Source of the DNA: a virus
Direction: 5' to 3' (one strand)
DNA length: 24,252 bases
IMG/VR virus record: IMGVR_UViG_3300034073_005278
Location: 1-24,252 of that record
In this document: piece by piece, positions 1 through 21,714 of the stretch
Numbering within the stretch: the first letter of the stretch is position 1
How the letters are laid out: each line of letters begins with the position of its first letter
The notes under the pieces: generated by a model
What the model saw: only the letters and a program-made list of their open reading frames with translations
Database searches by the model: none
Told to the model about the DNA's origin: nothing
Program-made: the position numbers and the translations under genes

Positions 1-62
1 CGCCACAGTGGCGGGAGAACATGATTGCAGGCGTCAAGAAAAGATGGGAAAGGTACAGAAAA

Positions 63-539
63 ATGAAAAATGAAAATACTTTTGGTAAAAAACTTGCATG
101 CTATCTCGCTAGCGGTTGGTTTTCGCCTGATCAGGACAAGCAGTTGACAAAGCTTGAGGCTGTCTTCGACAGTCGAGCTGAATGGATCTCTCTGGCTTCG
201 CCACGAAGGATCTTCGTCTGCCCACCAGACGCATCCTTGGAGGTCCAGGACAATGTCTTCAACGGCAATGTTGAACACATCAAGAAGGCAGACTTCTGCC
301 TCGTCAACACGACATATCGTGACATCGGCACGATCTGGGAGGCCGGCGCTGCATATGCCTACGGCACAAAGATCGTTTACTTCTGCGAAAATCTTCCACC
401 TGGTGCAAAGTTCAACCTAATGCTCAGTAGATCAGGTATCAAGGTTTGTACTACATTTGAGCAGCTTGAAGACTACCTTGAAAGGTGCAAGGCCGCCGGT
501 GAGATGTTATACGAGCCCTACGACAAGGAAATTGAGTGA
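63..539 (+). CDS. Nucleoside 2-deoxyribosyltransferase-like protein
   Basis: This family moves 2-deoxyribose between bases in nucleotide salvage, or hydrolyses deoxynucleotides. The sequence shows the family's opening strand and loop (YLASGWFSPDQ) and the signature DIGTIWEAGAAYAYGTK, in which the Glu is the expected nucleophile. The length of 158 aa fits the family. I chose ATG 63 because GGAAAGG (47-53) sits 9 bases upstream and the domain begins soon after it. ATG 21, in the same frame with GGGAG 3 bases upstream, is an alternative that adds 14 basic residues. The frame is open to the window edge, so a longer protein cannot be excluded. An upstream gene probably ends here, either at TGA 22-24 or at TGA 71-73; the latter would overlap ATG 63. 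A terminator follows. With the thymidine kinase and dCMP deaminase downstream it suggests deoxynucleotide supply. Confidence 0.8.
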   Translation: MKNENTFGKKLACYLASGWFSPDQDKQLTKLEAVFDSRAEWISLASPRRIFVCPPDASLEVQDNVFNGNVEHIKKADFCLVNTTYRDIGTIWEAGAAYAYGTKIVYFCENLPPGAKFNLMLSRSGIKVCTTFEQLEDYLERCKAAGEMLYEPYDKEIE

Positions 540-550
540 GTTATAACTCA
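537..550. repeat. 14-bp perfect palindrome over a stop codon
   Basis: TGAGTTATAACTCA reads identically on both strands and includes the TGA stop of the deoxyribosyltransferase gene. It lies 18 bases before the terminator stem. It could be an operator half-site pair or chance; no second copy was seen in the window. Confidence 0.45.
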
Positions 551-567
551 TCGCTGAACTAACTTCG

Positions 568-597
568 AAGGCCATTGTGAAAATCGATGGCCTTTTT
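568..597 (+). terminator. Rho-independent terminator
   Basis: AAGGCCAT (568-575) pairs perfectly with ATGGCCTT (587-594) around an 11-base loop and runs into five T (593-597). It separates the deoxyribosyltransferase gene from the homing-endonuclease locus, so the latter needs its own promoter or read-through. Confidence 0.8.
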
Positions 598-621
598 AGC
601 ATTTGTATATATGTATTTTTC

Positions 622-930
622 ATGGACACAATAGATACACCAAAAATTGTATGCGAGATTTGCAATACTGCGTTTACACACAAGAACATACAGATAAGAA
701 CGTGCAGTAAAAAATGCAGTTATGAGCTGAGAAATAAAACAAGACATCATGTAAAGCATGAACCTGTTGAAAAGAAATGCATTGAATGTCTTGAACCCTT
801 CCAAGACTATAGTAAAAAGAAGTTAGTGATCAAATGCCAAAATTGCGTTTATGCAAACATGGCATCAAAAGAAAACAGAACGGAAGTTATCATCAAACAG
901 ACGAAAGAAAATTACAGCAAAGCCTGCTGA
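622..930 (+). CDS. Zinc-finger module of a split homing endonuclease (HE1a)
   Basis: This 102-aa protein has two cysteine clusters. The first is CEIC followed by CSKKC, and the second is CIEC followed by CQNC. Both are of the zinc-ribbon type seen at the start of many phage homing endonucleases. The intact endonuclease at 3295-4182 carries four clusters of the same style fused to its nuclease domain, which suggests this is the detached DNA-binding part of one enzyme. Its stop (TGA 928-930) overlaps the next start as TGATG. That means either translational coupling or an old frameshift in one gene. No clear Shine-Dalgarno precedes ATG 622. An in-frame GTG at 577 lies inside the terminator and was not chosen. 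Base composition is visibly AT-rich compared with dnaE. The zinc-finger call is from motif reading only. Confidence 0.6.
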   Translation: MDTIDTPKIVCEICNTAFTHKNIQIRTCSKKCSYELRNKTRHHVKHEPVEKKCIECLEPFQDYSKKKLVIKCQNCVYANMASKENRTEVIIKQTKENYSKAC

Positions 931-1541
931 TGAAACGTCTTCATCAGGAAAGAGATTTTATCTCTGATGAAGGCATACGTCAATTGTCAGAGAAAGCCAA
1001 AAGCAGGTGGCGGTCAGATGATTATAGATCGAGCGTCAAGAAGCGCAACTTAGAGAAATATGGTGTAGAGCATTGGACGAAAACTGAAGAGGCTAGGAAA
1101 CAACTCAGCGAAAGATCAAAAAAATATAGGGCCTCAGATGAAACGAAGCAGAAGATGAGGGTTAGCGCTGCTAAACGCCTACGTGAAGGTCGTAATTTGC
1201 ACCCATTCCACGGCAAGGGTGGGTACAGACAAGACATTGATCTTTACGTAAGAAGCAGATGGGAGGCTAACTTTGCGAGATATTTGCTTTTGACGAATCA
1301 AAAATTTGAGTATGAAAAAGTGAGTTTTTCGCTTCGAGACGGAAGAACATATACACCTGATTTTAAAGTTGAAAATATGCTGTATGAAATCAAAGGATGG
1401 TGGACGCAAGCTGCAAAAGAAAAATTTAAAATCTTTAAGGAAGATTATCCTGAAACCGTCGTGCAAATAATAGACGAGGCAAGGTACAATCAGATCCAGG
1501 ATCAGTACGCTGCTTTGATTCCGAATTGGGAATATAAATGA
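930..1541 (+). CDS. Nuclease module of a homing endonuclease, PD-(D/E)XK/Vsr-like (HE1b)
   Basis: The protein has 203 aa. The N-terminal half is basic and helical with repeated segments of NUMOD type (RQLSEKAKSRW..., KQLSERSKKY..., and the phage-endonuclease phrase EKYGVEHW), likely DNA binding. The C-terminal half has a nuclease core: Glu112 in RSRWEANFAR, Asp144 in YTPDF, and Glu153-x-Lys155 in YEIKG. The same residues recur in the endonuclease at 3295-4182. ATG 930 is in TGATG overlap with HE1a. The frame is also open upstream to an ATG at 834, but that reading lacks the CxxC pattern seen in the other frame. The stop overlaps the dnaE start as ATGA (1538-1541). It would cut a specific target to mobilise itself or the neighbouring locus. 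The exact family (EDxHD/Vsr-like versus PD-(D/E)XK) is uncertain. Confidence 0.65.
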   Translation: MKRLHQERDFISDEGIRQLSEKAKSRWRSDDYRSSVKKRNLEKYGVEHWTKTEEARKQLSERSKKYRASDETKQKMRVSAAKRLREGRNLHPFHGKGGYRQDIDLYVRSRWEANFARYLLLTNQKFEYEKVSFSLRDGRTYTPDFKVENMLYEIKGWWTQAAKEKFKIFKEDYPETVVQIIDEARYNQIQDQYAALIPNWEYK

Positions 1542-3253
1542 CCAACATTCTTAGGCCACCTACACATTTCATCAGCCTTCACTCACACTCACATTTTAGC
1601 ACTTATGACGGCCTGGGGCAGCCATCAGATCACATTGATTTTTGTGTCCAAAATGGATTGTCAGGTTGGTCTCTTACCGACCATGGCAACGGCAACGGAT
1701 TGGCCCACGCCCATGCCCATGCCAAAAAGATCATCAAGTCGAAAGGGCACAAGTTCAGGCAGCTCTACGGCGTTGAGTTCTATTTCGTTCCTGATTTGGC
1801 CGATTGGAAGGTCAGGTACGACCTCTCCAAGAAAGAAGACTCCAAGAAGGGCGATGACGAAGAAGAAGCAGGTCTGGTCGTCGAGGACGCCGATGAGACA
1901 CGTTCCGACAGCGATCGATTCGTCGATGTCAACAAGCGTTACCACCTTGTGGTGGTCGCGAAGAACAACGTAGGCCTTTCCAACCTGTTCACTCTCGTCA
2001 AGAAGAGCTACGTCGACGGTTTCTATAAGTTTCCTCGAATTGACTTCAAGTTGCTGAAAGAGCATGGGGCAGGTCTGGTCGTTTCGACTGCCTGCGTCGG
2101 TGGTTATCCCAGCGGCATTATCTATAGCGAGTTTGGCGACAAGAAGTTCGCTGAGCTAGACCCATCATTGGTCGACGATGAAGTCGTGAGGGGCAGGATC
2201 AGAAACAAGCTGGAGAACGTCGTCGATCGATTCGTCGATTGTGTTGGACACGAAAACTTCTTCCTAGAACTTCAGTTCAACAAGCTGCCTGCCCAGGACC
2301 TGACCAACAGGATGATGATCGAGACAGCTGCATCGACAGGCTGCAAGCTTCTTTCCACCGCAGACTCACACTATCCAGAACCTGCCCTGTGGGAGGCCAG
2401 GGAGATCTATCGACAGCTACAACCTGGTCGCATGAAGATTGGTGTAGAACCTAAGCCTCTTCCTAAGTTCGAGGAACTGAAGTGTGAGCTGTACCCAAAG
2501 AACGCTCAACAGATGTGGGACGAATATCTGGGACGCCGTGAAGCCTATGATTGGTACAAGGGAACAGAAGACGTCGTCCGAACCTCCATGGAGAATGGTC
2601 ACGACATTGCCTGGAACCTTTGTGAGGAGATCTGGTTCGACACATCGGCCAAGCTTCCCACCTTCGGAACACCTGAAAAATCAGGCTTCAAGCAACTTGT
2701 CGACCTCGTCAAGGAAGGTTTGGTCGCCGAAGGCCTTGACAAGAAGCCTGACTACGTCGCCCGTGCCAAGATGGAGTTGGACGACATCAAGTACCTGAAG
2801 TCTGAGGACTACTTCTTGACGCTTCAGAAGGTTTTCAAGTTGGCCGAAAATCGAACGTTGCCTGGTTCAGGCCGTGGCTCAGGTGCAGGTTCACTCGTCA
2901 ACTACCTGCTAGGCATTACCCACGTCGATCCCCTCAAATATGACCTGCTGTGGGAGAGGTTCATGGGTCGCCACCGCTGTTTAGATCCAGCTACATTGGT
3001 GAAAATGTCAAGTGGGGATCAAATCCCTATCAGTTCTGTCAATGTAGGTGATGAAGTGGTGACAGGTCATAATCGCTCTCAGAAGGTGAAGTCTAAGTTT
3101 GTCACGAAACACAAGAAGCTTATGAAGCTTACTATTGGCAATCAAATCATCACGTGTTCTCCTAATCATCGTTGGATTGTACTTCGTGATGGTTTGGAAG
3201 TTGAAGTAACCGCAGATCAAATTCTTACAACAGATTTGATTAGAAAGCTCTAA
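1538..3253 (+). CDS. dnaE: DNA polymerase III alpha subunit, N-terminal half fused to split-intein N-half
   Basis: This is the first 480 residues of a bacterial-type replicative polymerase (family C), followed by 91 residues of intein. The PHP domain opens the protein. All nine metal-ligand positions of active PHP exonucleases look filled: His15, His17 and Asp24 (LHSHSHFSTYDG), His49 (LTDHGN), Glu in GVEFYF, His in HLVVVA, Cys in TACVGG, and Asp and His in TADSHY. Metal-dependent proofreading is therefore plausible, unlike in E. coli DnaE. The start of the palm follows (GSGRGSGAGSLVNYLLGIT, LLWERF). The extein stops at Arg480, just before the catalytic aspartates, and Cys481 begins the intein. 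ATG 1538 overlaps the endonuclease stop. A tandem TAA TAA ends the ORF. The other half is at 4118-6355, and the polymerase needs trans-splicing to be complete. Confidence 0.95.
   Translation: MTNILRPPTHFISLHSHSHFSTYDGLGQPSDHIDFCVQNGLSGWSLTDHGNGNGLAHAHAHAKKIIKSKGHKFRQLYGVEFYFVPDLADWKVRYDLSKKEDSKKGDDEEEAGLVVEDADETRSDSDRFVDVNKRYHLVVVAKNNVGLSNLFTLVKKSYVDGFYKFPRIDFKLLKEHGAGLVVSTACVGGYPSGIIYSEFGDKKFAELDPSLVDDEVVRGRIRNKLENVVDRFVDCVGHENFFLELQFNKLPAQDLTNRMMIETAASTGCKLLSTADSHYPEPALWEAREIYRQLQPGRMKIGVEPKPLPKFEELKCELYPKNAQQMWDEYLGRREAYDWYKGTEDVVRTSMENGHDIAWNLCEEIWFDTSAKLPTFGTPEKSGFKQLVDLVKEGLVAEGLDKKPDYVARAKMELDDIKYLKSEDYFLTLQKVFKLAENRTLPGSGRGSGAGSLVNYLLGITHVDPLKYDLLWERFMGRHRCLDPATLVKMSSGDQIPISSVNVGDEVVTGHNRSQKVKSKFVTKHKKLMKLTIGNQIITCSPNHRWIVLRDGLEVEVTADQILTTDLIRKL
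2978..3250 (+). other. Split intein, N-terminal half (Int-N, 91 aa)
   Basis: The segment starts with Cys in CLDPATLV (block A nucleophile) and includes VGDEVVTG. It ends with a block B region (TIGNQIITCSPNHRWIV) that holds the conserved His. The flanking extein residues are RHR. The ORF ends about 36 residues after block B, as is typical of the N-half of a split, endonuclease-free intein. The partner Int-C is at 4118-4273 and together they make a 143-aa minimal intein. Confidence 0.92.
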
Positions 3254-3255
3254 TA

Positions 3256-3290
3256 AGAATATGTATTCTCGGTAAACATTCCCGGGAATG
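3256..3290. promoter_or_regulatory. Two inverted repeats in front of the inserted endonuclease gene
   Basis: AGAATA-TG-TATTCT (3256-3269) and the perfect 14-bp palindrome CATTCCCGGGAATG (3277-3290) fill the gap between the Int-N stop and the endonuclease ATG at 3295. In RNA the second can fold as a 5-bp stem with a CCGG loop. It would cover GGGAAUG, the only Shine-Dalgarno-like sequence for that gene, so it may lower its translation. Operator function is the alternative. Confidence 0.5.
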
Positions 3291-3294
3291 CTAT

Positions 3295-4182
3295 ATGAAA
3301 AAGACATTACAGTGCCTACATTGCAGTAAGCAATTTGAAGTTTTTTATGAGATGGGTGACCAAGGCAGCTTGAATGCTTGCAAACGCAAGTATTGCTCGA
3401 AATCCTGTAAAAGAAATTTCAATAAAGCACACCCAACATCAGACCAAAAAGTCGCCTTGAACTGCATGCAATGCAGCACTGTTTTCTATAGGCCTTTATC
3501 GCAGTCGTTGACAGCTAAATTTTGCAGCAGAGAATGCATTCATAAGTCGACGCATAGATTTTGCAGCACATGTAAATCACAGATATCAAGTAGAATACGT
3601 GATGGAATTTGTTATGACTGTCGTCTTTCTGCACGAAGAATTTCTTTTAAATGTGAAGTATGTGCCAAAACTTGGCAGGATCTTCCTTCAAATTCAAAAA
3701 GATTTTGTTCGCGTAATTGTCAATGGCATGCTCAATCGTCAGGTCTTGTTAAGTTGGCCACGCATGGTAGGTGCGGATTCAGAAGTGATTTAAACGATGG
3801 CAATTACTACAAAAGTTCTCTTGAGGCAGATTTTGCGCGAGTATGTCGGTACAGAGGCCACAATTATCATTACGAACACAAAACATTCGAATTGACAATA
3901 AAAGGAAAGAAAATTTTCTATACACCCGATTTTTACTTGCCAGAGCAGAACCTCTACATTGAGATGAAGGGAAATCGACGTGATCATCGATACGATTCGA
4001 ACCTGAACTGTGCAGAAGAATTGAAAAAATTAGGAATCAACATTCGTGTAAACTTGATGTCAGAGTTTTATGATGACATTAAGGGGCTTGACATTCAAAA
4101 CATCGAAGGCTTCAATTATGATGGAACAAAATCACTTATTCAACTACGTCCCGGTCACAGCAATCGAAGTACTAGAACTTGA
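3295..4182 (+). CDS. Free-standing zinc-finger homing endonuclease in the dnaE break (HE2)
   Basis: The protein has 295 aa. Four cysteine clusters span about residues 1-155: CLHC...CSKSC, CMQC...CSREC, CSTC...CYDC and CEVC...CSRNC. A nuclease domain follows with Glu177 (SSLEADFAR), Asp212 (YTPDFYL) and Glu223-x-Lys225 (YIEMKG). This is the same core as in the endonuclease at 930-1541. The gene is in a different frame from both polymerase halves and its 3' end overlaps the start of the second half by 65 bases. Its place between Int-N and Int-C matches the 'fractured gene' arrangement first described from marine metagenomes. It probably cuts unbroken or unoccupied dnaE alleles to spread the insertion, but no cleavage site is shown by the sequence. 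It is AT-rich compared with the exteins on either side. Confidence 0.85.
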   Translation: MKKTLQCLHCSKQFEVFYEMGDQGSLNACKRKYCSKSCKRNFNKAHPTSDQKVALNCMQCSTVFYRPLSQSLTAKFCSRECIHKSTHRFCSTCKSQISSRIRDGICYDCRLSARRISFKCEVCAKTWQDLPSNSKRFCSRNCQWHAQSSGLVKLATHGRCGFRSDLNDGNYYKSSLEADFARVCRYRGHNYHYEHKTFELTIKGKKIFYTPDFYLPEQNLYIEMKGNRRDHRYDSNLNCAEELKKLGINIRVNLMSEFYDDIKGLDIQNIEGFNYDGTKSLIQLRPGHSNRSTRT

Positions 4183-4273
4183 TGCTGAAGTCGATCTAAT
4201 CGACATTGAAGTCGAAAACGATCACACATTTTTTGTGTCTCAGGATGGGACGAATTTTGTTCTAACCCATAAC
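4118..4273 (+). other. Split intein, C-terminal half (Int-C, 52 aa)
   Basis: Block F is DIEVENDHTFFV, and block G is FVLTHN with the penultimate His and terminal Asn. The +1 extein residue is Ser (4274-4276). These are the residues needed for class 1 splicing with Cys at the other junction. Its coding start lies inside the 3' end of the endonuclease gene. Confidence 0.92.
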
Positions 4274-6355
4274 TCAGGTTATCCTGACATCGACACCGAC
4301 GTCGGCGACCGTGACAAGCTGATCGAAGCAGCCAGAGAAATCTTCGGTAACGACGCTGTCGTCCCTGTCTCCAACTTCAATACCCTGAAACTGAAGTCGC
4401 TCGTCAAGGACGTCTCCAAGTTCTACGGAGTTCCTTTCGACGAGGTCAACGCTGTCACAGGCCCACTCGAGCGTGAAGTGGAGCAAAAGTCGCGCGATCC
4501 CAACATGGAAAAATCCATGTTCGTCCTGAAGCATGAGGACTGTATGGAACACTCCGAGAACTACAGGAACTTCATGGAAAAGTATCCTCAGGTCGAGGAG
4601 AAGATCAGGACACTGTTCATGATGAACCGCTCGGTCGGCCGTCACGCCGGCGGTGTCCTGATCTGTCCTCAGCTCGAGAAGCACATGCCTCTCATCACCG
4701 TTCGAGGTGAGCTTCAGACGCCGTGGACTGAAGGTGTCAATATTCGAAACCTTGAGGAGAATGGATTCCTCAAGTTCGACTTCCTCGGCATCAAGCAGAT
4801 GAAGATGGTGGAGGATTGCATCGCTCGAATCCTGAAACGGGAGCTAGGTCGTGAACCGATCTTCGAAGAGATCAAGAAGTTCTATGATGAGAAGCTCAAC
4901 TGTCGATACGTCGAACCAAACGACGACAAGGTCCTGAACCACGTCTATCGCAGCAATCGATGGCCAGGCATCTTCCAGTTCACATCCGAAGGCGCTCGGA
5001 AGTTCTGTCATGAGGTCCAGCCGACCTCGATCGAAGACATCGGCGTCGTCACTGCCATCTATCGCCCAGGTCCACTCAAGGCCAACGTTCACAAGAAGTA
5101 CGTCGAAGCCAAGAAGGACGCCTCCAAGGCGCAGTACGATCACCCTACCATCAAGGATGTTCTTGGCACGACCTACGGGTTCATTGCCTTCCAGGAGCAA
5201 TTCATGATGTTGGCACAGAAGCTCGCAGGATTCTCACCAGGTGAATCCGACAAGATGCGCAAGACTCTTGTCAAGAAGGACCTGACGTCCCTTGGCAAGA
5301 AGTCCGAAGAGAAAGAGGCCTTGGAAAAGAAGTTCATCGACGGCTGCATCACCGTCAGCGGCATGGAAAGGTTCAAGGCGAAGGAGCTGTTCGACAAGAT
5401 CGCGTTCTTCTCGTTGTATGGTTTCAACAAGTCCCACGCAATTGCCTATGCAATCGATTCGTACTACGGTGCCTGGTTGATGACCTACTATGAGACCGAT
5501 TGGCTGGCAACATGTCTTCAGTCTGAAAATGCCAACGTTGAAGGCCTGGCATGGATGATCTCAGAGATCAAGCAGCTCGGCTACAAGACCTCGACGCCTG
5601 ATATCAACCACTCTACGAACGAATGGACGTGGTCCGAGAAGCTTCACGCTTTCGTCCCGCCCCTGTCTTCGTTGAAGGGAGTCGGTGAGTCAGCCGTCGA
5701 GGAGATCATTGCAAATCGTCCATACAAGTCGATCGAGGACATGCTGTGGACGCCGGATGGCGTGTGGCGCCACTCCAAGTTCAACAAGAAGGCCATCGAC
5801 GCCCTGTTGAAGATGGAAGCCTTTGAGTCGCTGAGGGATCCTGAAACGTGCATCTGGGGCAACTACAGGCAGCTTCACTTCGCAATCGTTGAAAACATGG
5901 ATACCATCAAAAAATCCACGAAAAAAGATCCGCTGTCTGGTCAGAAGAAATTCTTTGAATTATTGGAGTCGTCACGAGAGATGCCCGATTGGACCCGTAT
6001 CGAGAAGATCGAGAACAAGATTTCTTGCTCCGGCACGATGGACATTAGCATGTGTGTTGAGTATGATATATTGCAACGTTTGCAGAACAAGGGAATTAGG
6101 TCCCTTGACGAGATTGATGGAACAGATATTTACTGGTTTGTCGTAAAGAACTCCATTCCAAAGACGACAAAGAATGGAAAGGCATACCTGCTGCTGGAGG
6201 CATTGAGTCCTTCAGGCAAGGTTTCAAAGATCTTCTGTTGGAAATGGGATGGAGAACGGCAGATTGCGCCTTACACGCTGTGTTTGGCTGAGGTTTCTAA
6301 GTCTGACTTTGGAATGTCCACTACATTTTGGAAATTGAATGAGGTTGATCAATGA
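4118..6355 (+). CDS. dnaE: DNA polymerase III alpha subunit, C-terminal half fused to split-intein C-half
   Basis: The first 52 residues are Int-C and the next 693 are extein. The extein begins SGYPDIDTDVGDRD. Its second and third aspartates match the E. coli DnaE catalytic pair, and the third catalytic Asp is in KFDFLG. Other DnaE landmarks are RSVGRHAGGVLI, AIYRPGPL, FQEQFM, YGFNKSHAIAYA, a helix-hairpin-helix-like SLKGVGESAVEEI and a C-terminal OB-like region (WFVVKNSIPKTTKNGKAYLLLE). Added to the N-half this makes an 1173-aa polymerase, close to the 1160 aa of E. coli. ATG 4118 is preferred because GAAGG (4105-4109) lies 8 bases upstream. ATG 4121 follows at once, and in-frame starts at 4070 and 4073 lie deeper in the endonuclease gene. 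The final 150 codons look more AT-rich than the core. Unspliced, this half lacks the PHP domain and the start of the palm. Confidence 0.95.
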   Translation: MMEQNHLFNYVPVTAIEVLELDAEVDLIDIEVENDHTFFVSQDGTNFVLTHNSGYPDIDTDVGDRDKLIEAAREIFGNDAVVPVSNFNTLKLKSLVKDVSKFYGVPFDEVNAVTGPLEREVEQKSRDPNMEKSMFVLKHEDCMEHSENYRNFMEKYPQVEEKIRTLFMMNRSVGRHAGGVLICPQLEKHMPLITVRGELQTPWTEGVNIRNLEENGFLKFDFLGIKQMKMVEDCIARILKRELGREPIFEEIKKFYDEKLNCRYVEPNDDKVLNHVYRSNRWPGIFQFTSEGARKFCHEVQPTSIEDIGVVTAIYRPGPLKANVHKKYVEAKKDASKAQYDHPTIKDVLGTTYGFIAFQEQFMMLAQKLAGFSPGESDKMRKTLVKKDLTSLGKKSEEKEALEKKFIDGCITVSGMERFKAKELFDKIAFFSLYGFNKSHAIAYAIDSYYGAWLMTYYETDWLATCLQSENANVEGLAWMISEIKQLGYKTSTPDINHSTNEWTWSEKLHAFVPPLSSLKGVGESAVEEIIANRPYKSIEDMLWTPDGVWRHSKFNKKAIDALLKMEAFESLRDPETCIWGNYRQLHFAIVENMDTIKKSTKKDPLSGQKKFFELLESSREMPDWTRIEKIENKISCSGTMDISMCVEYDILQRLQNKGIRSLDEIDGTDIYWFVVKNSIPKTTKNGKAYLLLEALSPSGKVSKIFCWKWDGERQIAPYTLCLAEVSKSDFGMSTTFWKLNEVDQ

Positions 6356-7140
6356 GCAATAATTTTCCTGAGAAAATCGCCGATAGAGAAAAGTACATCT
6401 ATGAGCAGGTCCTAGCTGGCAACTTTGATGCCGAATGGGTGCCGCTGGAGCACACGGCCGGCGGCAGAACAATAAAGTTCAATGTAATGAAGGACGCGCT
6501 GAAGATTGACGGTGTCAGAGTCAATGTTTCAGCTGAGCTGCAGCAAAAGTTAGCTGACGTTTTTGGTGCGTCGCTTTTGACTGCACACATCGCCGACTTG
6601 ATGTTCATCAACGCTGTTCACAGGATTGAACCGTGCCCGATGCAGATCTCTTCGACAGTGGCGTCGATGGTAAAGCACAGCCAGATGGTCGACACGAAGG
6701 TAGGTCAGAATCCAACAGGACTTGTTGCTTCTCCTGGAAAACACTGGATTCTCGATAAGAAGCTAGATTACAATACTTCTAAATCTTGTAACTACGGTTG
6801 GCATTTCGTAGGAACAAATTACAAAGGAATTAAAGGACATCCTGCGGCTTCAAAGCAAAATAAACTGAACGGTGCGCCCGTGTCGGTGATCCAACCAAAT
6901 GCTTGCGCTCACGACATGAAGCATTCTGATTATTCACAGATTTGCCAACTCGTATCGCAGGTCTGCTGGATCGATGGAGTTGAATATAAAATTTCCAATG
7001 TGTTACAAGATCCCTCAAAGTGCGACCTGGCGACGTCAGGAGGCCCATTGATCTATGTACGACAACCCGGAACAATGCCTTCAGTTGGTACAACTGTTCT
7101 TTTTCCTGTTAAGATTACGTCCAGCAAAGGAATTGTGTGA
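6352..7140 (+). CDS. Conserved phage-type protein of unknown function
   Basis: The protein has 262 aa and is coupled to dnaE by ATGA (6352-6355), so it is co-translated with the polymerase C-half. I do not recognise the family. The N-terminal 80 residues are charged and helical. The C-terminal half is rich in His, Cys and aromatic residues. It contains NYGWHFVG, GHPAAS, VIQPNACAHDMKHSDYSQ and WIDGVEYKIS, which look like an enzyme core: the closely spaced His and Asp in HDMKHSDYS could bind metal or act in catalysis. There is no signal peptide or membrane segment. A role in replication is suggested only by position. A peptidoglycan or amidase-type hydrolase is possible but not supported enough to name. 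Confidence 0.7.
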   Translation: MSNNFPEKIADREKYIYEQVLAGNFDAEWVPLEHTAGGRTIKFNVMKDALKIDGVRVNVSAELQQKLADVFGASLLTAHIADLMFINAVHRIEPCPMQISSTVASMVKHSQMVDTKVGQNPTGLVASPGKHWILDKKLDYNTSKSCNYGWHFVGTNYKGIKGHPAASKQNKLNGAPVSVIQPNACAHDMKHSDYSQICQLVSQVCWIDGVEYKISNVLQDPSKCDLATSGGPLIYVRQPGTMPSVGTTVLFPVKITSSKGIV

Positions 7141-7144
7141 GCGT

Positions 7145-7342
7145 ATGCCGACTTATGAATATAAGTGTGAATCTTGCAATCAACAACTTGAGGTTGAGCA
7201 ATCTATCAAAGACGATCCTTTGGAGACATGTCCACATTGTCATTCTGCTTCTTTGAAAAAGCTTATTAGTCGTTCTTCCTTTGTTTTAAAAGGATCTGGT
7301 TGGGCTGCCGACAATTATTCCTCAACAGGTACAAATAAATGA
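7145..7342 (+). CDS. FmdB-family zinc-ribbon protein
   Basis: This 65-aa protein begins MPTYEYKCESC, the canonical start of the FmdB regulatory-protein family. It has Cys8, Cys11, Cys29 and Cys32 in two CxxC knuckles that should bind one zinc. The tail (FVLKGSGWAADNYSS) is also typical of the family. FmdB proteins are small putative regulators of unsettled function. The start is fixed by family resemblance; AAAGGA lies 13 bases upstream, which is rather far. Its stop overlaps the epimerase start as ATGA. Confidence 0.85.
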   Translation: MPTYEYKCESCNQQLEVEQSIKDDPLETCPHCHSASLKKLISRSSFVLKGSGWAADNYSSTGTNK

Positions 7343-8301
7343 GGATATTGATAACAGGTGGAGCAGGCTTTATTGGAAGCAACCTCACTGCCAAATGTGT
7401 AGAAAATAGACACGCTGTTGACATTGTTGACAATCTTTCAAATGGGCATATTGCATTTGTGCACCCTAGCGTCATTGAAAATGATCGATTGTATATTGCT
7501 GATTTTTCTTCCGACGTTATTTTACAAAAAATTAATAATAAGTCTTATGACGTCGTTGTTCATTTGGCTGCTCAACCTCGCGTTGGTTATTCCGTAGAAC
7601 AGCCATATGAGACGCACCAAACAAATGTTACTTCAACAATGAAGTTACTAGATGCATGCAGAAACAACATTAAAAGATTCGTTTTCGCATCAACATCAGC
7701 GGTGTATGGGAATGTTAAAGAATTGCCTACAAATGAAAATTCTGAAAAAAATTATCAATCTCCTTATGCCCTTCAAAAGTTGATCATAGAAGATTATCTT
7801 AGGCTATATAATAAACTTTACGATTTTGACTCTATTAGTCTTCGTTTTTTTAACGTTTTTGGTCCAAATCAATTAGGTAATTCTCCTTATGCTACGGCTG
7901 TGTCTTCATGGATAAATTCCATTATGAAAAATGAATCTATGAGATCAGATGGTGACGGTACACAATCACGAGACATGTGTTATGTCGACAATGTTGTCGA
8001 CGCTTGTGTCAGGTCCATCCTTGTTGAAGGTAAATTTGCAGGTGAAACAATGAATGTTGCCTGCGGTGAAAGAGTTACGAACAAAGAAATACTTCAATAT
8101 CTTATAAAGAAATTTCCTAATGCGAAGTCACACGACGCCCCGTGGAGACCAGGTGATGTAATGCATACGCAGGCTGATATTACAAAAATATCAGAATTAC
8201 TTGGTTATAAGCCTCTCGTTCATTTTTGGGAAGGACTAGATATTACCCTTGATTGGTATAAACAAAATTGGAAAAAAATAAAGAGCCTATCAAACGAATA
8301 A
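7339..8301 (+). CDS. NAD-dependent sugar-nucleotide epimerase/dehydratase
   Basis: The protein has 320 aa and is an extended short-chain dehydrogenase. The Rossmann NAD motif GGAGFIG is at residues 7-13. The catalytic set is Ser120 region (FASTSAVYG) plus Tyr143-x3-Lys147 (SPYALQK), with the downstream RFFNVFGPNQ and the PWRPGD loop near the C-terminus. These place it with UDP-glucose or UDP-GlcNAc 4-epimerases, though substrate cannot be read from the sequence. It would act in the cytoplasm on nucleotide sugars. With the phosphomannomutase-like gene at the window end it suggests that the phage alters a surface glycan or glycosylates its own products. It is distinctly AT-rich, unlike dnaE, which suggests separate origin. 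Confidence 0.9.
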   Translation: MRILITGGAGFIGSNLTAKCVENRHAVDIVDNLSNGHIAFVHPSVIENDRLYIADFSSDVILQKINNKSYDVVVHLAAQPRVGYSVEQPYETHQTNVTSTMKLLDACRNNIKRFVFASTSAVYGNVKELPTNENSEKNYQSPYALQKLIIEDYLRLYNKLYDFDSISLRFFNVFGPNQLGNSPYATAVSSWINSIMKNESMRSDGDGTQSRDMCYVDNVVDACVRSILVEGKFAGETMNVACGERVTNKEILQYLIKKFPNAKSHDAPWRPGDVMHTQADITKISELLGYKPLVHFWEGLDITLDWYKQNWKKIKSLSNE

Positions 8302-9329: not shown

Positions 9330-9610
9330 AGAATCTTAAAGATGAAGATGTCCTTAGGGTCATGAGAGAAGAGTGGTATAAGAAAGTGAACGCCTTGTCC
9401 GAGGCTGTTGACCTGATGTTAAGTACAAAAGTTGATGGTGAAGAAAAGCAAGTCGTTTCCAAAGGCCTAAGTATTCGGCACAAGAAAGACAAAAAGATTT
9501 TCACTGTTGGTGAAGTTGGCCCAACACATGTGCGCCTTGTCTCACCCGATGGCCAAGAATTAGATCCAATTAGCGCAGAAAAACTGGAGGATGAATATGA
9601 GCTTGCTTAA
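9326..9610 (+). CDS. Small protein with SH3-like C-terminus, unknown function
   Basis: This 94-aa protein is not recognised by family. The first 45 residues are helical and charged. Residues 46-90 (KGLSIRHKKDKKIFTVGEVGPTH and onward) alternate short strands and turns as in a KOW/SH3-like barrel, ending in an acidic helix. ATG 9326 overlaps the deaminase stop as ATGA. The 3' end contains GGAGG (9586-9590), which serves as the ribosome site for the superoxide-dismutase-like gene. Confidence 0.75.
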   Translation: MKNLKDEDVLRVMREEWYKKVNALSEAVDLMLSTKVDGEEKQVVSKGLSIRHKKDKKIFTVGEVGPTHVRLVSPDGQELDPISAEKLEDEYELA

Positions 9611-10310
9611 GAACGATGACCTTGACTCAATGCTGAAAGGTCTTGTGAAAGACGCTGTCAATACCACCGTCACATCTAAATTACCTAAACTTGACGAAGC
9701 TTATCGTCACGAAGCAAAGCCTTTTAAGCAGGTCTCAGAATTGGTTTCACAGAAGACCAAAACGGCCCATAGCGAACTTTATAAAAATTACGTAGAGTCA
9801 TTAAATAAAGTTTCTGCCGAGCTCGACACTGCAAACAAAGCTGAAGCTAATCCAAGGCATTCACAGTTTCGCTCTCTTAAAATAGACGAAGTGTTCAACC
9901 TAAATGCTTCTTGGTTGCATGAGCTTTATTTTGCCAATTGCTTCGACCCACATAGCGAAGTCACCATGGATTCAATGGCATTCCTTCGGATAGAAAGAGA
10001 CTTTGGATCCTTTGAAGATTGGCAGCGTGATTTTATGGCCTGTGCGCTATCCAGCCAAAATGGCTGGGCCGTGACGGGATACCACATGTTTTTGAAAAAA
10101 TTCGTCAACATGATGATTGACGGTCACTCCGGCCATGTTCCTGTTGGTTTCTATCCGGTCATTGTTGTCGATATGTGGGAGCATGCTTACTATCGTGATT
10201 ACCTTACCGACAAGAAGAGCTACCTAATTTCGCAGATGCGTGAACTCAACTGGACTGTCATAGAAGAAAGATTTAAAAAGGCTGATTCGATGGGGCAGGT
10301 GCTGAAATGA
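9597..10310 (+). CDS. Fe/Mn superoxide dismutase-like protein
   Basis: This 237-aa protein carries a Fe/Mn-SOD fold after a phage-specific N-terminal extension of about 35 residues. The four metal ligands are all present: His58 (TAHSELYKNY), His108 (ASWLHELYF), Asp192 and His196 (DMWEHAYYRDY). Their spacing (50, 84, 4) is close to that of E. coli SodB (47, 83, 4). Tyr65 stands where the gateway Tyr34 is expected. Superoxide dismutation is therefore possible, although a structural role for the fold is also conceivable. ATG 9597 is preferred to ATG 9591 because GGAGG touches the latter. ATGA overlap leads into the acidic protein that follows. No signal peptide was seen. Confidence 0.88.
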   Translation: MSLLKNDDLDSMLKGLVKDAVNTTVTSKLPKLDEAYRHEAKPFKQVSELVSQKTKTAHSELYKNYVESLNKVSAELDTANKAEANPRHSQFRSLKIDEVFNLNASWLHELYFANCFDPHSEVTMDSMAFLRIERDFGSFEDWQRDFMACALSSQNGWAVTGYHMFLKKFVNMMIDGHSGHVPVGFYPVIVVDMWEHAYYRDYLTDKKSYLISQMRELNWTVIEERFKKADSMGQVLK

Positions 10311-20475: not shown

Positions 20476-21714
20476 ATGTTTGATCAAAGATTTAAAGGAA
20501 TTGTTCGCAATTTTTCCGCTGATGATGTCAATCGTCTTAGAGGAACTCTTCGTATCCAACACACCTTGGCGGACGAAGGATCAAGAAAACTTTGGAAAAT
20601 GATGCATGAACAGCCCTATGTTCATGCTCTAGGTGCTCTCACAGGCAACCAGGCAGTCCAGCAGGTCAAAGCTGGGCTCAAGGCGATCTACCTATCAGGA
20701 TGGCAGGTTGCAGCCGATGCGAACCTTGCCGGTGAGATGTATCCTGATCAAAGCCTGTATCCTGCCAACAGCGTGCCGTCGGTTGTCAAGAGGATCAATA
20801 ATGCTCTCACGCGAGCCGATCAGATTGACACCGCGGAAGGCAAGATGGGTACCGATTGGTTTGCACCCATCGTCGCTGATGCAGAGGCCGGATTCGGTGG
20901 ACCTCTAAACGCATTTGAGCTCACTAAGGCACTCATCGATGCCGGCGCGGCAGGTGTCCACTTTGAGGACCAGTTGGCCTCAGAGAAAAAGTGCGGTCAC
21001 ATGGGTGGAAAGGTGCTCGTCCCAACCTCTCAGTTCATCCGTACCCTTACAGCAGCTCGTCTTGCTGCGGACGTCATGGGTGTCCCAACGGTCATCATAG
21101 CTAGAACTGATGCCGATTCGGCCAATCTGATAACCAGCGACATTGATCCATACGACCGCGACTACATCGAACCAGGCAAGCGTACCCCTGAAGGATTCCA
21201 CTACCTCTGCCGAACTGGCCTCGAACGTTCGATAGCCCGTGGACTAGCCTATGCTCCCTATGCAGACATGCTCTGGATGGAGACTTCCACTCCTGACCTC
21301 GAACAGGCCAAGCTATTCGCCGAGGCCATTCATAAGCACCACCCAGGAAAACCACTGGCCTACAACTGCTCACCATCCTTCAACTGGAAGAAGAACCTCG
21401 ATGACTCAACCATTGCCAAGTTCCAACGAGAGCTCGGAGCCCTGGGCTACAAGTTCCAGTTCGTCACCCTCGCAGGCTTCCACTCACTCAACCACTCCAT
21501 GTACCAGTTGGCCCATGGCTACAAGGATCGAGGCATGGCAGCCTACTCAGAACTACAACAGGCTGAATTCGCTGCTGAGAAAATCGGTTACACGGCCACG
21601 AAGCACCAAAGGGAGGTCGGCACCGGTTACTTCGACGCTGTCTCACAGGTCATCTCGGCAGGTAATTCATCTACTTTGGCACTTCATGGCTCAACTGAAG
21701 AAGAACAATTTTGA
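20476..21714 (+). CDS. aceA: Isocitrate lyase
   Basis: This enzyme cleaves isocitrate to glyoxylate and succinate, the first step of the glyoxylate shunt. The protein is complete at 412 aa (E. coli AceA has 434). It keeps the catalytic KKCGH loop (residues 171-175, Cys173), IARTDA (substrate Arg), YNCSPSFNW (Asn, Ser, Ser of the substrate site) and [12 protein letters not shown] near the C-terminus. The metal-site region [17 protein letters not shown] is also intact. Codon use and GC in the core look closer to the dnaE exteins than to the AT-rich neighbours, which may mean acquisition from a host or adaptation to high expression. No malate synthase or other shunt gene is in the window. The gene starts 3 bases after the preceding stop. 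Activity is very likely; its role in infection is inference. Confidence 0.97.

What the first reader, a model, noticed from the sequence alone, without database searches (positions are those of the whole stretch)
1538..6355. Fractured dnaE: split intein with an endonuclease gene in the break
The polymerase is encoded in two ORFs separated by a free-standing endonuclease gene. Int-N (Cys at 2978) and Int-C (Asn-Ser junction at 4273/4274) have all class 1 splicing residues, so the products should trans-splice. The junction (RHR / SGYPDIDTD) is 6 residues before the catalytic aspartates, a different place from the cyanobacterial DnaE split intein (at the YCFNKSH equivalent, which is uninterrupted here). 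Fractured genes with split inteins are known from metagenomes; I do not know of one at this dnaE site.
Basis: partly seen in the sequence, partly recalled or inferred. Interest (0 to 1): 0.8.

Follow-up and report, generated by a model that had tools for sequence, protein, structure and literature searches.

The report
Phage polymerase gene split by intein
In this virus of bacteria the gene for the DNA-copying enzyme is cut in two by a self-splicing protein element carrying its own DNA-cutting gene; the two protein halves should weld themselves back into one enzyme, and related viruses show the same trick at up to five different places in the same gene.

Summary
Window 1538-6355 encodes a phage DnaE in two ORFs: DnaE residues 1-480 plus a 91-aa Int-N, then Int-C plus DnaE residues 481-1173. 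A 295-aa nuclease gene (3295-4182) lies between them. All class 1 splicing residues are present. A close relative (L002; about 93% DNA identity over the 5' 3 kb, 94% over the two dnaE exteins) has an uninterrupted 1173-aa dnaE, the exact length of the predicted spliced product. This is a 'fractured gene', a kind described in 2009. The insertion point lies four residues before the catalytic PDIDTD motif. A motif scan found 17 more viral contigs with an intein at this site, most of them split, eight with the same nuclease family in the break. No true match turned up in a pattern scan of 84,980 bacterial and archaeal species genomes or in a search of 50,697 named phages. One sister pair shows the same intein split plus nuclease in one phage and fused without nuclease in the other, with intein DNA about 95% but adjacent extein DNA 80% identical: good evidence for compatible halves and recent horizontal movement. 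Relatives carry split inteins at four further dnaE sites; one dnaE is encoded in four pieces. Trans-splicing and homing remain inferred, not measured.

The parts
1538..2977 (+). DnaE N-extein (residues 1-480; PHP domain and first part of the polymerase core, ends ...FMGRHR)
   Evidence: Pfam PHP and DNA_pol3_alpha; collinear with L002 DnaE 1-480
2978..3253 (+). Int-N, 91 aa, Cys1 to stop TAA at 3251-3253; block B CSPNH
   Evidence: Invariant Cys1 and conserved block B His in 17 aligned inteins; PF14890 hit
3295..4182 (+). Free-standing PD-(D/E)xK-type endonuclease gene (295 aa): Cys-rich zinc-finger-like N-terminal part, nuclease domain from about residue 155 with E177, D212, E223-x-K225
   Evidence: Invariant in 9 homologues; fold matches TnsA, I-Bth0305I, Vsr
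4106..4109 (+). Possible ribosome-binding site (AAGG) 8 nt before ATG 4118
   Evidence: sequence
4118..4273 (+). Int-C, 51-52 aa (start at 4118 or 4121), block F DLIDIEVENDHTFF, block G VLTHN; overlaps the 3' end of the endonuclease gene by 62-65 nt
   Evidence: alignment of 17 Int-C; TIGR01443 hit
4274..6355 (+). DnaE C-extein (residues 481-1173 + stop), begins S-GYPDIDTD with the catalytic Asp pair at 4286-4288 and 4292-4294
577..1541 (+). Second endonuclease gene directly upstream, related to the one in the break; interrupted in the window by a 1-nt shift near 868, intact (321 aa) in L002; its stop overlaps the dnaE start (ATGA)

Best explanation
This is a mobile split intein at the active-site edge of a phage DnaE. 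The two ORFs are translated separately. Int-N and Int-C associate, fold into one class 1 intein, excise themselves, and join DnaE 1-480 to 481-1173 (Arg480-Ser481 bond) to give the full polymerase. The nuclease in the break is the homing part: it would cut dnaE alleles lacking the element at or near the same site, and repair from the occupied copy would spread intein plus nuclease with a short stretch of flanking DNA. Shown: gene anatomy, conserved residues, empty and fused alleles, purifying selection, fold. Inferred: splicing activity, nuclease activity and target, homing.
For: Catalytic residues conserved. Empty allele in close relative L002, spliced length identical. dN/dS window vs L002 about 0.025 (N half) and 0.008 (C half). 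Int-N, Int-C and nuclease under purifying selection in pairs of diverged fractured loci: dN/dS 0.04-0.13 where dS was calculable. L025 (split + nuclease) and its sister L032 (fused, no nuclease) share intein DNA at 96%/95% while adjacent C-extein DNA is 80%: the halves are complementary and the element probably moved. Divergence from L002 peaks beside the insertion (13 of 66 nt vs 5.8% elsewhere, P 9e-5), as co-conversion would leave. Patchy presence on the DnaE tree, with window sister to empty L002. Eight other loci hold the same nuclease family in the same break. Fused homologue predicted at pLDDT 94, best PDB matches gp41-1 and other inteins.
Against: No splicing or cleavage measured. The intein structure predicted is a homologue's fused form, not the window's two halves. 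The nuclease model is moderate (pLDDT 80, pTM 0.50, nine sequences). Co-conversion is one reading of the flank divergence; the pattern was noticed before it was tested. Higher intein than extein identity could partly reflect slower evolution.
Confidence: 0.85

Rival explanations
1. Split polymerase without splicing: the halves associate non-covalently, as the split NrdA of phage Aeh1 does, and the intein pieces are relics.
For: Non-covalent reassembly is documented for phage genes split by homing endonucleases (PMC2988022).
Against: Both intein halves keep the splicing residues in 17 loci and are under purifying selection; unspliced Int-N and Int-C would sit next to the catalytic aspartates.
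Confidence: 0.06
2. A decaying or mis-assembled locus: the insertion inactivated dnaE, or the contig is a chimera.
For: The window is a metagenomic contig, and the upstream nuclease gene carries a 1-nt frameshift.
Against: Independent contigs with the same order, including L022 with 66-77% identical proteins; open frames; dN/dS far below 1.
Confidence: 0.03
3. Splicing works but the nuclease is a passenger rather than the mobilising enzyme; spread is by ordinary phage recombination.
For: Some site-C inteins lack a nuclease (L037, L040, L044, L043, L032, L039), and in L035 a possible restriction endonuclease and a DNA methyltransferase occupy the break instead.
Against: Nuclease conserved with its catalytic residues in nine loci, under purifying selection; intein more similar than exteins in L014/L041, L025/L032 and L037/L040.
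Confidence: 0.2

Closest known systems
Fractured genes of Dassa et al. 2009 (Nucleic Acids Res 37:2560; text not held, known from citations and memory) and the AceL NrdHF fractured gene (PMC7891396)
   Same: Conserved DNA-metabolism gene broken by a split intein with an endonuclease gene in the break; probable phage
   Different: Host gene here is dnaE at the catalytic PDID motif; AceL NrdHF is a class 3 intein with a GIY-YIG nuclease, this is class 1 with a PD-(D/E)xK-type nuclease; I could not check whether dnaE is among the gene types of the 2009 paper
Cyanobacterial split DnaE inteins (Ssp, Npu)
   Same: Split class 1 intein in DNA polymerase III alpha
   Different: Different site (Y|CFNKSH there; RHR|S-GYPDIDTD here); cellular rather than viral; from memory, the cyanobacterial halves lie far apart in the genome without a nuclease gene between them
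gp41-1 split intein
   Same: Closest solved intein fold to the fused homologue (Foldseek E 1.6e-8, TM 0.78-0.86, 26% identity)
   Different: Host gene is a phage helicase; only weak sequence match to this Int-N (E 0.037)
Trichodesmium erythraeum dnaE (Liu and Yang 2003, cited in PMC5874633)
   Same: Several inteins in one split dnaE
   Different: Cellular; the insertion sites were not compared here
I-Bth0305I / Vsr-fold homing endonucleases
   Same: Nuclease domain fold similar (Z 7.2 over 81 residues and 6.7 over 92 residues)
   Different: Active site here is E...D...ExK; best structural match is TnsA (Z 8.6)

Membership tests
Class 1 intein | Nucleophilic residue 1, block B His, block F, block G His-Asn, and Cys/Ser/Thr at +1 | tested here: met
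   Cys1, CSPNH, DIEVENDH, HN-S in window; conserved in 17 sequences
Split intein | Halves encoded on separate ORFs | tested here: met
   TAA stop at 3251-3253; Int-C in another frame overlapping the nuclease gene
Split intein | Trans-splicing activity | not testable with these tools
   Needs co-expression; only indirect support from the fused sister form L032
Fractured gene (Dassa type) | Conserved gene broken by a split intein with a free-standing endonuclease gene in between | tested here: met
Cyanobacterial DnaE split intein site | Insertion before the CFNKSH motif | tested here: not met
   Site is 4 residues before the PDIDTD catalytic motif; YGFNKSH uninterrupted in window
PD-(D/E)xK nuclease superfamily | Helix Glu, Asp, and E-x-K on the core strands | tested here: met
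   E177, D212, E223, K225 invariant in nine homologues; core fold matches TnsA, I-Bth0305I and Vsr
EDxHD homing endonuclease family | EDxHD active-site motif | tested here: inconclusive
   Fold similar to I-Bth0305I, but E-x-K is conserved; the family motif was not aligned residue by residue here
Homing endonuclease | Cleaves the empty allele and drives gene conversion | not testable with these tools
   Indirect: flank divergence peak and intein/extein identity contrast

The most novel reading that the evidence does not exclude
The replicative polymerase of this phage group is a repeated landing ground for split-intein elements. Five distinct dnaE sites are occupied in different relatives, with a site-specific nuclease type in the breaks. 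One gene (L037) is encoded in four pieces to be joined by three split inteins. Elements switch between fused and split states, and an opened break can take other cargo such as a possible restriction endonuclease plus methyltransferase (L035).
Probability: 0.6. Interest if true: 0.65.

Novelty: new member of a known kind. Interest (0 to 1): 0.55.

Why it matters
It adds a well-sampled dnaE site, with empty, fused, split-only, split-plus-nuclease and cargo-bearing alleles, to a kind of gene organisation known from few examples. That series makes the order of events (homing, splitting, nuclease loss, refusion) testable. The inteins at different sites of one gene must splice without cross-joining, so they are candidates for natural sets of orthogonal split inteins. 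Because the break adjoins the catalytic aspartates, polymerase activity should depend on splicing.

Tried and rejected
Group I or other known RNA intron in the break: no Rfam match in window 1-7500 beyond chance-level hits. Close relatives of the window nuclease by peptide patterns in viral contigs: none; the motif scan at the intein/extein junction worked instead. The genome contigs junction scan gave three chance hits only; it demands HN, then a codon fitting S/T/C, then xx-PD[F/I/L]DxDF, so an intein with another ending would be missed. Window and L014 junctions found nothing in named phages; the window Int-N query hit only the extein part. Dassa 2009 and Carvajal-Vallejos 2012 are not held. 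A plasmid search with the fused intein failed on a wrong frame and was not repeated. Start at ATG 4070 for Int-C: no ribosome-binding site, and the stretch before 4118 lies within the nuclease gene. The extra nuclease copy in L018 is free-standing, not in another broken gene.

Full report
What is there. Window 1538-6355 encodes a phage DNA polymerase III alpha (DnaE) in two ORFs. The first carries DnaE residues 1-480 and a 91-aa Int-N that ends in a stop. The second carries Int-C and DnaE residues 481-1173. A separate gene for a 295-aa nuclease lies between and overlaps the start of Int-C by 62-65 nt. Pfam, NCBIfam and PHROGs place the DnaE domains in collinear order across the two ORFs.

The empty allele. 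A 55.6-kb viral contig (L002) is about 93% identical in DNA over the 5' 3 kb and 94% over the dnaE exteins. Its dnaE is uninterrupted, 1173 aa, the exact sum of the two exteins. (One search failed to load the loci; the alignment figures come.) The residue after the junction is Val in L002 and the required Ser in the window. Between the two alleles 194 substitutions are synonymous and 18 fall in the 11 codons that change an amino acid; dN/dS is about 0.025 for the N half and 0.008 for the C half. The 33 nt on either side of the insertion differ at 13 of 66 positions against 5.8% elsewhere (P 9e-5, a test chosen after seeing the pattern). This is what a short co-converted tract would look like.

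The intein. A junction-motif scan returned 17 further viral contigs, all with an intein at this dnaE site. Across 17 aligned inteins Cys1 and the HN-[S/T] end are invariant, and the CSPNH block B and DIEVxxDHxF block F are nearly so. Two are fused mini-inteins (L032 = L009, L039 = L017). In L037 and L040 a single stop codon and restart separate the halves. The fused L032 intein is predicted at pLDDT 94 and pTM 0.86; its best PDB matches are gp41-1 and other inteins.

The most telling pair. L025 (split, with nuclease) and L032 (fused, without) are sisters on the DnaE tree. Their intein DNA is 96% (N part) and 95% (C part) identical, their adjacent C-extein DNA only 80%. So the same halves that are separate in one phage form one intein in the other, and the element has probably moved between them. 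L014/L041 and L037/L040 show the same contrast.

The nuclease. Nine loci, the window included, hold this nuclease in this break. They share Cys pairs in the N-terminal part and invariant E177, D212, E223 and K225. The predicted nuclease domain resembles TnsA (Z 8.6), I-Bth0305I (7.2) and Vsr (6.7); the model is of moderate quality. This fits a PD-(D/E)xK-type nuclease. Homing is inferred.

How it most likely works. Two polypeptides of 571 and about 744 aa are made; the intein halves associate and splice; full DnaE results. The break is between the equivalents of E. coli R396 and V397, four residues before the catalytic Asp pair, so the unspliced halves are unlikely to be active (inference). 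The nuclease would cut empty alleles and copy the element in.

The wider pattern. Reading whole dnaE loci in the relatives shows split inteins at five sites (L002 numbering): A about 189 (STA|...HN|CVGG), B about 447 (GRG|...HN|SAPGS), C 480 (this one), D about 600 (NRS|...SN|CGRHAGG), E about 866 (FNK|...SN|SHA, next to but not the same as the cyanobacterial site). ORFs in the breaks at A, B, D and E differ by site and look like distinct nucleases, with weak family matches. L029 has A+E, L035 A+C, L036 C+D, L041 and L023 C+E, L044 B+C and L037 A+C+D, so L037 DnaE would need three joinings. In L035 the C break holds a D12-class DNA methyltransferase (E 1e-33) and a 192-aa ORF with only a weak endonuclease match, possibly a restriction-modification pair.

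Known or new. The organisation is the fractured gene of Dassa et al. 2009; AceL NrdHF is a described case (PMC7891396). I could not read the 2009 paper, so I cannot say whether dnaE was among its genes. No true occurrence at this site was found in a pattern scan of 84,980 cellular species genomes or in named phages, within the limits of those searches. I file it as a new member of a known kind; the five-site, multi-piece pattern is the more novel part.

Noticed in passing
L033 2004-2050, L034 2292-2340, L036 1101-1150, L014 987-1035, L041 1751-1800, L042 2152-2200, L044 1815-1860, L039 1475-1520, L050 2480-2600 (coordinates after orienting dnaE to the + strand): In nine relatives dnaE has a stop codon right after HxHxxFS near codon 20, followed by a few extra nt, often with a frame change, and then the conserved sequence resumes. 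In seven the nucleotides before the resumed frame are a Ser codon of the same TCN box as the one before the stop; in the other two a codon differing at its first base. A short ribosomal hop would restore the exact length of uninterrupted relatives. Six of the nine have an intact endonuclease gene directly upstream (same kind as window 577-1541); window and L002 have that gene but no stop. This resembles the T4 mobA/gene 60 bypass cassette. Recoding is a hypothesis.
   Followed up: partly
L033 809-1039 and L034 1150-1300 (oriented): A second copy of the dnaE start (RFVGLHGHTG / RFSGLHGHDGFS) lies upstream of the endonuclease gene, so that gene sits between two copies of the dnaE start.
   Followed up: partly
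window 577-1541: The upstream endonuclease gene is frameshifted by 1 nt near 868 compared with the intact 321-aa gene in L002; in an A-rich stretch, so a sequencing error is possible.
   Followed up: partly
L035 4982-6399: Site-C break of dnaE filled by a D12-class adenine methyltransferase and a 192-aa possible restriction endonuclease instead of the usual nuclease.
   Followed up: partly
window 20476-21714: Isocitrate lyase (PF00463, E 7e-100), unusual for a phage; among 16 related contigs only L008's record has it, 67% identical.
   Followed up: partly
window 9591-10310: Protein with an iron/manganese superoxide dismutase C-terminal domain (PF02777, E 3e-19), embedded in a larger phage protein.
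   Followed up: no
window 3-539; L002 4427-5569; L029 472-1683: Nucleoside deoxyribosyltransferase ORF that in L002 and L029 continues at its N-terminus with what looks like a GIY-YIG/NUMOD-type endonuclease sequence (the GIY-YIG part by eye).
   Followed up: no
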